A DNA stretch of 64,000 nt from Rugalucina vietnamica (taxonomy: Eukaryota; Mollusca; Bivalvia; Lucinida; Lucinidae). The stretch is from contig OZ024872.1 in NCBI GenBank assembly GCA_964017185.1, forward strand, positions 47,144,188 through 47,208,187, in the 5' to 3' direction. Below, piece by piece: positions 37,401 to 40,400 of the stretch. A program made the position numbers and the translations under genes. The notes under the pieces were generated by a model that searched no databases, was not told the DNA's origin, and saw only the letters and a list, made by a program, of their open reading frames with translations. Numbering within the stretch: position 1 is the first letter of the stretch; each line of letters starts with the position of its first letter.

Positions 37401-40400
37401 TCACCTGAGAGTCAACAAGTACATTCACTGGACAAAGTTTTTTTTTTTTTGTTTTTTTTTTTTAAGATCTGATCAAAATTGAAGATGCTGGAGTGGCCAC
37501 AACACTAAAAATTGATTTTTCAAACATTCAAGGGCAGCTAACTCAGGCCTGTGGAAATATTTAAAAAATTCACTTGTCCAGGGACAAGTAAACTAAAAAA
37601 ATTTTCTTGTCCTGACCAAAGTTCACTTGTCCAAAAACTAATCATCAAAAACCATATTTTTCAGTTTCTTACCCTGTTGTCTAGATTGCTGGCCTGACAT
37701 ACTTTTTTAAAACTTAAAAATAATGACCAAGAATTGGCACAGTCATGCACAAATCAGTCCTTGAGACTGTGAAACTTATAACCAAAAATATCAAAAAATA
37801 AAGCAATGATCTGAAACTGTAACAATCAGACAAATAAACACGTCCTTAAAACTCAAGTGTGCTTTGACCAGGATCTGACAAAATCAATCAAAAAACATTC
37901 TGAAATCACGCATAGATAAAATAAGAGCTGTCGCAGGACAGCGTGCTCGACTGCTTCTGACCTTTGTCAAACATTAGGCCAAACCCGACCGGTAACCCAA
38001 AGCATTATGCTCATACATCTTTTTGCCTTGATGCGATAAGGCAAAATCACTGAACCATGAAAGTTAACTATAACTACCTAAGATTTAAAGGTCTCACTCA
38101 TATTGTGAAAGAAGTGTGTTCACATACCAACTCAGTGCCAAGACAAATGGCAAAATCACTGAACCGTGAAATAAGGTCACACTGACCTATAAGTATTTCA
38201 GGGTCAAAGCCTCAAAGGTCTAGTGATACTTACTCATAATGTGAAAGAAATATGATCATATACCCATTCAGTGTTGAGATATAAAGCAAAATCACTGAAC
38301 CATGAAATTAGGTCATAGTGACCTATAAGTATGTTTGGGTTAAAGGTCTGGTCATACTCATTCATAATCAGAAAGAAGTATGAAAAAATACCAACTGAGT
38401 GTCGAGATATAAGGCAAAATCACTGAACCATGAAATTAGGTCACAGTGACCCAGGAATACTTTACGGTCAAAGGTCTTGTCATACTCATACATATCGTGA
38501 AAGAAGTATGTTCATATACCAATTGAGTGCCGAGATATAAAGAAAAATCACTGAACCGTGAAATAAGGTCATATTGACCTAGGACTACTTTAGGGTCAAA
38601 GGTCTTGTCATACGCAAACATAGTGTCAAAGAAGTTTGTTCATAAACTACTTGAGTGCCGAGATATAAGGCAAAGTCACTGAACCGTGAAATTAGGTCAT
38701 AGTGACCTATAAGTATATTGGGGTCAAAGGTCTGGTCATAATCACTCATAATCTGAAAAAAGTTTGAAAATATTCCAATTGAGTGTCAAGATGTAAGGCA
38801 AAATCACTGAACCGTGAAACTAGGTCACAGTGACCTAAGACTACTTCAGGGTCAAAGGTCTTGTCATACGCAAGCATACTTTGAAAGAAGTTTGTTCATA
38901 AACCATTTGAGTACCGAGTTATAAGGCAAAATCACTGAACCGTGAAATTAGGTCACAGTGACCTATAAGTATATTGAGGTCAAAGGTCTGGTCATACTCA
39001 CTCATAATCTGAAAAAAGTATGAAAATATACTAATTGAGTGTCAAGATATAAGGCAAAATCACTGAACCGTGAAATTAGGTCACATTGACCTAGGACTAA
39101 TTCAGGGTCAAAGGTCTTGTCATACGCAAACATACTTTGAAAGAAGTTTGTTCATAAACCATTTGAGAACCGAGATATAAGGCAAAATCACTGAACCGTG
39201 AAAGTAGGTCACAGTGACCTAGAAGTATATTGGGGTCAAAGGTCTGGTCATACTCACTCATAATCTGAAAAAAGTATGAAAATATACTAATTGAGTGTCA
39301 AGATATAAGGCAAAATCACTGAACCGTGAAATTAGGTCACAGTGACCTATAAGTATATTGGGGTCAAAGGCCTGGTCGTACTCACTCATAATCTGAAAGA
39401 AGTTAGAAAATATTCTAATTGAGTGTCAAGATATAAGGCAAAATCACTGAACCATGGAAAGTAGGTCAACCGACCCTTACCGTCATGACGCACAAGTCAG
39501 TGTCACAAAGTCAAAAGATGAACGACCAACCATCTTCCTAAGTTGTTTCTATTAAGAAATAAAAAGAAAAAAAATTCGGGGAGTTCTAGATTTTGACCTC
39601 TAGCCCCGCCCCCCTGACTCCGACCCAGAGGTCCGATGTCATGGAACCTAAAGTGTATGAAGTATGAATGCTTTATGATAAGTTGTTGTCAAGATATGGA
39701 CTCCTTGTAAAAGTTACATAGCAGTACATCTATTTTTTACAGTGTTCTAGTTTTTAACCTCCAGCCCCACCCCCCAGGCATGGTCCGAGAGACCCTATGC
39801 CATGAAATGAAACTCAACCCTACAGGGTACCTATGGTCCGAGTATGAAAGCCATTATTATTAATGGTGTTCTAGATTTTAACCTCTAGCCCCACCCCCTG
39901 GCATGGACCCAGGGATCTGATGCCATGGAATGAAAGCCGACCCTACAGGGTGTCAATGGCCCAAGTATCAATGCTTTCTGATGAGTGGTTGTCAAGATAT
40001 GGACTTCTAGAAAACTTTAACACAAGAATTGCCATTTTTGAAGGTGTTCTAGATTTTAACCTCCAGCCCCACCCCCTGGTCTGGACCCAGGGGCCCGATG
40101 CCATGGAATGAAAGCTAACCCTACAGGGTATCTATGGTCCAAGTATGAATGCTTTCTGATGAATGGTTGTCAAGATATGGACTTCTAGAAAACTTTAACG
40201 CAAGTGTGACGCGCACGCGCACGGGAACGCGCACGGGAACGGGAACGGGAACGGGAACGTGGACGACCGGGGTGACTGCAATAGCTCTATGCACTTCGTG
40301 CAGTCGAGCTAAAAATGATAAGAAATGAACAGCTACCAAGGATACATGATCAGTATCATTACATGCACACAATCACATGCCCATTACAAAATATTTAGTT

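What the first reader, a model, noticed from the sequence alone, without database searches (positions are those of the whole stretch)
38174..39348. Array of estrogen-response-type palindromes at exact 128-bp spacing in RPS27A intron 1
Seen directly: ten AGGTCAnnnTGACCT sites (nine exact), nine of them spaced exactly 128 bases. IR3 palindromes of this sequence are the known binding arrangement of estrogen-receptor-type nuclear receptors, and molluscs have such receptors. Ten sites in register inside the first intron of a housekeeping ubiquitin/ribosomal gene could titrate or recruit receptors. The palindrome is also the best conserved part of the unit. Any receptor role is inference.
Basis: partly seen in the sequence, partly recalled or inferred. 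Interest (0 to 1): 0.75.

Follow-up and report, generated by a model that had tools for sequence, protein, structure and literature searches.

The report
Transposon carrying thousands of estrogen-receptor sites
The repeated estrogen-receptor-type sites in this ribosomal-protein gene intron are the core of a common jumping DNA element that has spread many thousands of identical sites through the animal's genome, so they are not a special feature of this gene, though why several such elements carry receptor sites is worth testing.

Summary
In detail: ten AGGTCAnnnTGACCT sites, nine exact, one 136-bp gap and eight 128-bp gaps. The array is not particular to RPS27A. It is the core tandem repeat of a ~2.4-kb element at window ~37921-40315 that has the same ends at 10 other loci. 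Its minus strand has the layout of a non-autonomous Helentron (HINE): subterminal inverted repeats, microsatellite, central tandem arrays, 3' hairpin.

The own genome (1.09 Gb, unnamed) holds 22,978 exact sites against 20 for the reversed control; a glucocorticoid-type palindrome of the same shape is at chance, 118 against 125. The genome encodes ER-like and ERR-like DNA-binding domains, so binding is plausible; it was not tested.

Within the array the palindrome arms are the best conserved part. After insertion they decay little, if at all, slower than the neighbouring box, so host-level selection is unproven. Other tandem families here, some clearly HINEs, carry other receptor half-site arrangements (TCAAGGTCA 235,394 times against 6,614 control). 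That recurrence is the interesting part.

The parts
37921..40315 (-). whole non-autonomous Helentron-like element (HINE), about 2.4 kb, 5' end at the high coordinate; outer limits good to a few bases
   Evidence: shared ends in 10 loci L005-L014; the L008 copy is 99.3% identical over 1935 bp
38093..39468 (-). 128-bp tandem core array, 10.7 copies, carrying the IR3 sites
38174..38188 (.). first IR3 site AGGTCACACTGACCT
39334..39348 (.). tenth IR3 site AGGTCACAGTGACCT
39742..40204 (-). second tandem array of the same element (123/178-bp units), with no exact AGGTCA
40209..40259 (-). microsatellite (ACGGGA-type) of the element's left module
40300..40309 (-). 5' subterminal inverted repeat GCTCGACTGC (read on minus)
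40274..40280 (-). internal repeat TGCAGTC complementary to the subTIR
37945..37954 (-). 3' subterminal inverted repeat GCAGTCGAGC (read on minus)
37927..37942 (-). 3' hairpin GCTGTC-CTGC-GACAGC; present in 10 of 10 element loci, in L006 with one changed base
43158..43283 (-). open frame with the first coding exon of RPS27A ([17 protein letters not shown])
36285..36530 (-). open frame with a later RPS27A exon ([19 protein letters not shown]...)

Best explanation
The array is the satellite-like core of a non-autonomous Helentron (HINE) that inserted in the RPS27A intron. The IR3 sites were present in the source element and were copied around the genome with it, ten or so at a time, presumably by rolling-circle transposition. 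Shown: the element, its ends, its dispersal, the site numbers, the conservation of the palindrome between units of one array, and ER-like and ERR-like DNA-binding domains in the genome. Inferred: that the element relies on proteins encoded by an autonomous Helentron; that the sites are bindable and were held by selection on the element before it spread (for instance receptor-driven transcription or opening of chromatin in the germ line); that at RPS27A the array is a passenger with little or no role.
For: 22,978 exact sites genome-wide against 20 for the reversed control; IR3 of another receptor class at chance, 118 against 125. 11 copies in 10 loci share both ends; their flanks differ except for the duplicate pair L008/L009, and the two L010 copies lie side by side. 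HINE features on the minus strand; exact 5' subTIR in 8 of 10 loci, exact 3' subTIR in 9 of 10, hairpin in 10 of 10. 150 Helitron_like_N matches (150 of 409 candidates scored), many in open frames of 2,000 aa and more. A sister HINE in the window (450-bp units) ends in 38 bp that are 97% identical to a stretch about 6 kb downstream of one such match, in L060. Arms 1/120 against spacer 6/30 and rest 148/900 among the ten units. The two ER-like exon peptides have AncSR1 (4oln) and ER (1hcq, 1hcp, 4aa6) as their best solved relatives.
Against: No autonomous partner with the 128-HINE's own ends was found, but only six stretches from five Helitron loci were looked at, four of them only ~3.5 kb around the domain. 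Even for the 450-HINE only the 3' end of the partner was seen; no 5' subTIR was found in the 5 kb upstream stretch L059. No empty site was tested. Post-insertion decay of the arms is not clearly slower than that of the neighbouring box (19/1534 against 48/2931, Fisher p 0.36), which argues against continuing host-level selection. Binding is untested.
Confidence: 0.85

Rival explanations
1. The array in the RPS27A intron is a functional regulatory cluster that recruits or titrates ER/ERR at this housekeeping gene.
For: Nine exact sites of ten; arms best conserved in the array; receptors present in the genome; another HINE with TCAAGGTCA half-sites lies just upstream of the first coding exon (array 44003-44578).
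Against: The same array occurs at very many places; the window copy is 99.3% identical to the L008 copy, so it is young and shows no locus-specific history.
Confidence: 0.05
2. The palindrome is a neutral passenger: its perfection reflects the sequence of the founder unit and homogenisation by unequal exchange and gene conversion, with no protein involved.
For: Young copies show similar rates in arms, box and rest (6/1162, 10/2231, 62/8617); singleton variants per column are alike (0.33 in arms, 0.31 outside arms and spacer); the adjoining box, which matches no receptor site that I recall, is nearly as conserved.
Against: Spacer positions vary while the arms do not (6/30 against 1/120); in older units (over 2% divergence) the arms are lower, 13/372 against 38/700 and 161/2699, though not significantly; unit families that differ otherwise share receptor half-sites.
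Confidence: 0.45
3. The palindrome serves as a structural element (cruciform or replication/recombination signal) of the rolling-circle element rather than as a protein site.
For: HINEs and Helentrons have palindromes with stem-loop potential at their 3' ends (passages of PMC4067079 and PMC7492417); AGGTCACAGTGACCT is a 7-1-7 inverted repeat in units with a CAG spacer (sequence read directly).
Against: Other families use direct or everted arrangements of the same half-site, which do not form the same hairpin; spacers such as TAG, which break the inner pair, are tolerated.
Confidence: 0.08

Closest known systems
Cg_HINE elements with Cg170/HindIII-type satellite-like arrays in the Pacific oyster (PMC7492417, passages read)
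   Same: 5' subTIR, complementary IR and microsatellite in the left module; short tandem array; 3' subTIR and palindrome; T-rich insertion; no TSD; dispersed
   Different: 128-bp unit with an IR3 receptor-type palindrome, and two different tandem arrays in one element; the term 'transcription factor' does not occur in that paper's main text and 'receptor' only in its reference list
DINE-1 / HINE of Drosophila and mites (PMC4067079, passages read)
   Same: subTIRs, 3' palindrome, non-autonomous, Helentron partner; a DINE-1-like element supplies binding sites for the male-specific lethal complex in D. miranda
   Different: other sequences and other bound factor
Alu-driven spread of DR2 retinoic acid response elements in primates (PMC1785376, abstract and outline read)
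   Same: a mobile element spreads consensus nuclear-receptor elements in very large numbers (108,582 DR2, 90% in Alu)
   Different: SINE instead of Helentron; DR2 instead of IR3; there binding was shown by ChIP, and the motif arose largely by CpG deamination of a non-consensus motif, whereas here it is consensus in nearly every unit sampled
ISX element of Drosophila miranda (PMC4384637, abstract read)
   Same: a transposable element dispersing factor-binding sites, shared between copies by gene conversion
   Different: 77 sites with shown function on one chromosome; here thousands of sites genome-wide without a shown function

Membership tests
HINE (non-autonomous Helentron) | subterminal inverted repeats near both ends | tested here: met
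   GCTCGACTGC / GCAGTCGAGC; exact 5' copy in 8 of 10 loci, exact 3' copy in 9 of 10
HINE (non-autonomous Helentron) | palindrome near the 3' end after the 3' subTIR | tested here: met
   GCTGTC-CTGC-GACAGC in 10 of 10 loci, L006 with one changed base
HINE (non-autonomous Helentron) | complementary IR, microsatellite and central tandem repeats between the modules | tested here: met
   TGCAGTC, ACGGGA-type microsatellite, 178-bp and 128-bp arrays in the window copy
HINE (non-autonomous Helentron) | T-rich target, no target-site duplication | tested here: inconclusive
   ends abut short A/T-rich stretches and no duplication is evident by eye in 11 copies; no empty site was tested
HINE (non-autonomous Helentron) | no coding capacity | tested here: met
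   no stop-to-stop frame over 110 aa listed within 37921-40315; shorter frames were not examined
HINE (non-autonomous Helentron) | ends shared with an autonomous Helentron of the genome | tested here: inconclusive
   not found for the 128-HINE in six stretches of five Helitron loci; the 450-HINE of the same window shares its 3' 38 bp at 97% with a stretch ~6 kb downstream of a Helitron_like_N match; that element's 5' end was not found in L059
estrogen response element | AGGTCAnnnTGACCT sequence | tested here: met
   9 of 10 exact
estrogen response element | a cognate receptor in the same genome | tested here: met
   ER-like exons (P-box CEGCKAFF) in L031 and an ERR-like exon (CEACKAFF) in L034; the ERR label is by recalled motif
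estrogen response element | receptor binding and transcriptional response | not testable with these tools
   needs EMSA, CUT&RUN or reporter assays
classical satellite DNA | long arrays confined to heterochromatin | tested here: not met
   short arrays of about 10 units dispersed along the listed first 8.6 Mb of C1; heterochromatin itself cannot be seen here

The most novel reading that the evidence does not exclude
A whole clade of Helentron-type elements in this genome uses nuclear receptors as host factors. Families whose tandem units are largely unalignable (128, ~450, 167, 151, 354, 146 bp) each carry receptor half-sites in different arrangements (IR3, TGACCTTGACCT with CAAGGTCA, extended TCAAGGTCA), because binding by receptors active in the germ line (ER, ERR, FTZ-F1 or GCNF-type; motif names recalled) helps the elements to be expressed or opened for transposition. 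As a side effect the genome carries hundreds of thousands of receptor half-sites that could buffer or redistribute receptors.
Probability: 0.2. Interest if true: 0.8.

Novelty: new variant of a known kind. Interest (0 to 1): 0.5.

Why it matters
It turns a supposed gene-specific hormone element into a genome-wide property: about 23,000 perfect ER-type sites, apparently spread mostly by one transposon family, in a 1.09-Gb animal genome that also encodes ER-like and ERR-like receptors. If such receptors occupy these arrays, the transposon would be a large part of the receptor's landscape, which bears on how invertebrate ERs find targets and on the reading of endocrine studies. Why several element families with different units carry such half-sites can be tested directly.

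Tried and rejected
Gene-specific regulatory cluster at RPS27A: rejected as the main reading because the array is a dispersed element. Classical satellite: rejected, arrays are short and dispersed. Generic abundance of IR3 palindromes: rejected, the glucocorticoid-type IR3 is at chance.

Simple enrichment of AGGTCA as evidence: weak. In 20 stretches around receptor exons AGGTCA ranks only 107th of 1,772 hexamers. Any word inside an abundant repeat exceeds its reversed control, so 235,394 against 6,614 shows only that it lies in abundant repeats; the weight lies on its presence in different unit families. Of five unit families in the window chosen without regard to the motif, three are dense in half-sites (128, 450, 167), one is sparse (180/178) and one has none (161). 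AGGTCAC is one of two heptamers repeated in at least four of the five; the other is ATATCTC, which hints at old shared descent instead. The 151-, 354- and 146-bp families were picked from the TCAAGGTCA list and are therefore biased.

Unit alignments (nine units, both strands, kept if at most 1 of 100 shuffles scored as high): apart from the 180/178 pair of one family, 14 pair-and-strand rows passed; 9 hold a receptor half-site and 5 do not (128-151, 180-167, 178-167, 178-146, 146-151 on plus). The 128-146 pair did not pass there; it is supported by blastn (83% over 36 bp, E 2.6e-4) and by a laxer alignment (score 56 against at most 32 in 100 plain shuffles), a control under which long gappy alignments also passed.

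Decay tests: (101 units) gave 8/1210 in arms against 138/11308 outside arms and spacer; with more units it stayed weak, and units are not independent. L009 was dropped in both because it duplicates L008. Rows with fewer than 110 (131 hits to 111) or 105 (172 hits to 138, hit number) aligned columns were dropped. The sampled arrays come from the first 3.8 Mb of contig C1, as listed, not from a random sample.

Literature: searches gave no title or abstract start that describes receptor sites in Helentrons of molluscs. They cover only the open PMC library; one search used broad terms; listed papers such as PMC9301316 and PMC12628747 were not opened.

Not obtained: the count of TCAAGGTCAAGGTCA and a DNA search with the palindrome-free unit did not complete. 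No species name is available.

Full report
Observation. The ten sites are present as described; nine are exact; the gaps are 136 and eight times 128. They form a TRF array at 38093-39468. RPS27A is on the minus strand, and the array lies between its first coding exon (frame 43158-43283) and the exon near 37.0 kb.

The array belongs to a mobile element. Ten stretches of the same genome holding the array (L005-L014, the first places on contig C1; an eleventh, L015, has a lone site without the element's ends) match the window beyond the array on both sides, from 37920 to about 40315, and then stop. The 11 copies in these 10 loci have the same ends; flanks differ except for the duplicate pair L008/L009, the two L010 copies lie side by side, and the copies in L014 and the second in L010 are interrupted. 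The window copy is 99.3% identical to L008 over 1935 bp. On the minus strand the order is: T-rich flank, subTIR GCTCGACTGC, hairpin TGCACGAAGTGCA, IR TGCAGTC, microsatellite, 178-bp array, 128-bp array, subTIR GCAGTCGAGC, hairpin GCTGTCCTGCGACAGC, T-rich flank. This is the layout given for HINEs in PMC7492417 and PMC4067079 (passages). The genome has at least 150 Helitron_like_N matches, many in open frames of 2,000 aa or more. About 6 kb downstream of one of them (C1:9286323, frame of 2521 aa) lies a 38-bp stretch 97% identical to the 3' end of the 450-bp HINE of this window (L060 2460-2497); the matching 5' end was not found in L059. No partner with the ends of the 128-HINE was found in the six stretches examined, four of which reach only ~1.5 kb beyond the domain.

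Numbers. Exact IR3: 22,978 against 20 for the reversed pattern. Neighbouring word CACTGAACCNTGA: 25,690 against 38. Word ACTCATAATCTG: 10,555 against 109. With 9, 11 and 4 exact copies of these words in the window element this means about 2,300-2,600 element-equivalents. AGAACANNNTGTTCT: 118 against 125.

Conservation. Among the ten window units the arms have 1 of 120 cells off consensus, the spacer 6 of 30, the adjoining box 6 of 230, the rest 148 of 900; the palindrome mask is the lowest of 128. Over 111 units: arms 98.6%, other columns 88.2%. These are mostly differences between unit classes that recur from copy to copy and so were already in the source element (inference). Changes after insertion are few: among 128 units, nearest-neighbour differences are 19/1534 in the arms, 48/2931 in the box, 223/11316 elsewhere (Fisher p 0.36 and 0.045, units not independent); in the 97 units within 2% the figures are 6/1162, 10/2231 and 62/8617, in the 31 older ones 13/372, 38/700 and 161/2699 (p 0.18 and 0.055). 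Genome-wide, one-mismatch to exact ratios after subtracting the reversed control are 0.352 (IR3; 33,090 within one mismatch, control 2,055), 0.402 (box word; 40,230, control 4,251) and 0.763 (ordinary word; 21,622, control 3,125). Each word has one fixed one-mismatch variant in the window element, 1 per 9, 11 and 4; if all elements share these, the ratios become about 0.24, 0.31 and 0.51. In nine loci counted directly they are 16/74, 15/88 and 11/33, uncorrected, which does not favour the palindrome over the box. Constraint before amplification is therefore clear for the box plus palindrome; constraint after insertion is at most slight.

Receptors. zf-C4 gives 75 exon-level matches. L031 carries [32 protein letters not shown] and [37 protein letters not shown], whose best solved relatives are AncSR1 (4oln) and then ER entries (1hcp, 1hcq, 4aa6). 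L034 is ERR-like (CEACKAFF; assignment by recalled motif). A passage of PMC4388693 says that invertebrate ER domains, molluscs among them, bind estrogen response elements and that mollusc ER activates constitutively in vitro, its function being unconfirmed.

Beyond the finding. TCAAGGTCA occurs 235,394 times against 6,614 for the reversed word, in the listed places in ladders of several periods. In the window it lies mainly in the ~450-bp and 167-bp arrays. The three 450-bp arrays are bracketed by GCTCACCTGAG and the 167-bp array by TAGCTCGCCTG inverted pairs, and the 167-bp element has the same hairpin stretch GAGCTGTCGCAGGACAGCGT and the same GACTGCAATAGCTCT stretch as the 128-HINE. Of 14 unit pairings that passed the alignment test apart from one same-family pair, 9 run over a receptor half-site, for example 167 with 454 (TCAAGGTCAcCC..), 167 and 454 with 151 (TGACCTTGACCT...CAAGGTCA), 454 with 354, and 146 with 151 and 354; 5 run over other sequence. 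The 146-bp unit shares a CAAARTCACTGRACCRTGAAATTAGGTCA-like stretch with the 128-bp unit but continues as a direct repeat AGGTCAAGGTCA instead of IR3 (this pair did not pass the stricter test). The 161-bp family has no half-site, and 151, 354 and 146 were chosen by the motif. HINE ends were checked for the 128, 450 and 167 families; the same search for subTIR pairs found none of this type around the 180- and 161-bp arrays, and the other families were not checked.

Mechanism. Most likely the source HINE carried about ten IR3-bearing units, and transposition spread them. That the palindrome was held by receptor binding useful to the element is a reasonable but unproven inference; neutral descent with homogenisation is about as likely. 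A role at RPS27A is unlikely on present evidence.

Noticed in passing
window ~43741-44668, array 44003-44578: A second HINE, with 167-bp units rich in TCAAGGTCA and the same hairpin stretch as the 128-HINE, lies about 460 bases upstream of the frame with the first coding exon of RPS27A.
   Followed up: partly
window 23438-25149, 32880-34055, 48830-50132: Three copies of a ~450-bp-unit HINE family with extended receptor half-sites, bracketed by GCTCACCTGAG pairs; the 3' 38 bp of the first match a stretch ~6 kb downstream of a Helitron_like_N match, in L060.
   Followed up: partly
G000 (whole genome): TCAAGGTCA occurs 117,579 + 117,815 times against 3,298 + 3,316 for the reversed word; the listed places form tandem ladders of several periods.
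   Followed up: partly
window 38593, 38721, 38849, 39105, 39233 (starts): Five of the ten units carry an exact DR1-like GGGTCAAAGGTC downstream of the palindrome, in a stretch among the slowest-changing in the nearest-neighbour test; motif name recalled.
   Followed up: no
G000:C4:30355688-30356251 and 30361368-30361521: Seven zf-C4 first-finger matches of 24 residues at 82-base spacing, and two more 5 kb on: possibly a tandem array of a nuclear-receptor finger exon.
   Followed up: no
G000, e.g. C1:9286323, L055-L060: At least 150 Helitron_like_N matches, many in open frames over 2,000 aa with near-identical scores, suggesting recent activity.
   Followed up: partly
L041:215-901: A 146-bp tandem family shares a CAAARTCACTG...TGAAAT box and half-site with the 128-bp unit but has a direct repeat AGGTCAAGGTCA instead of IR3 (not passed).
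   Followed up: partly
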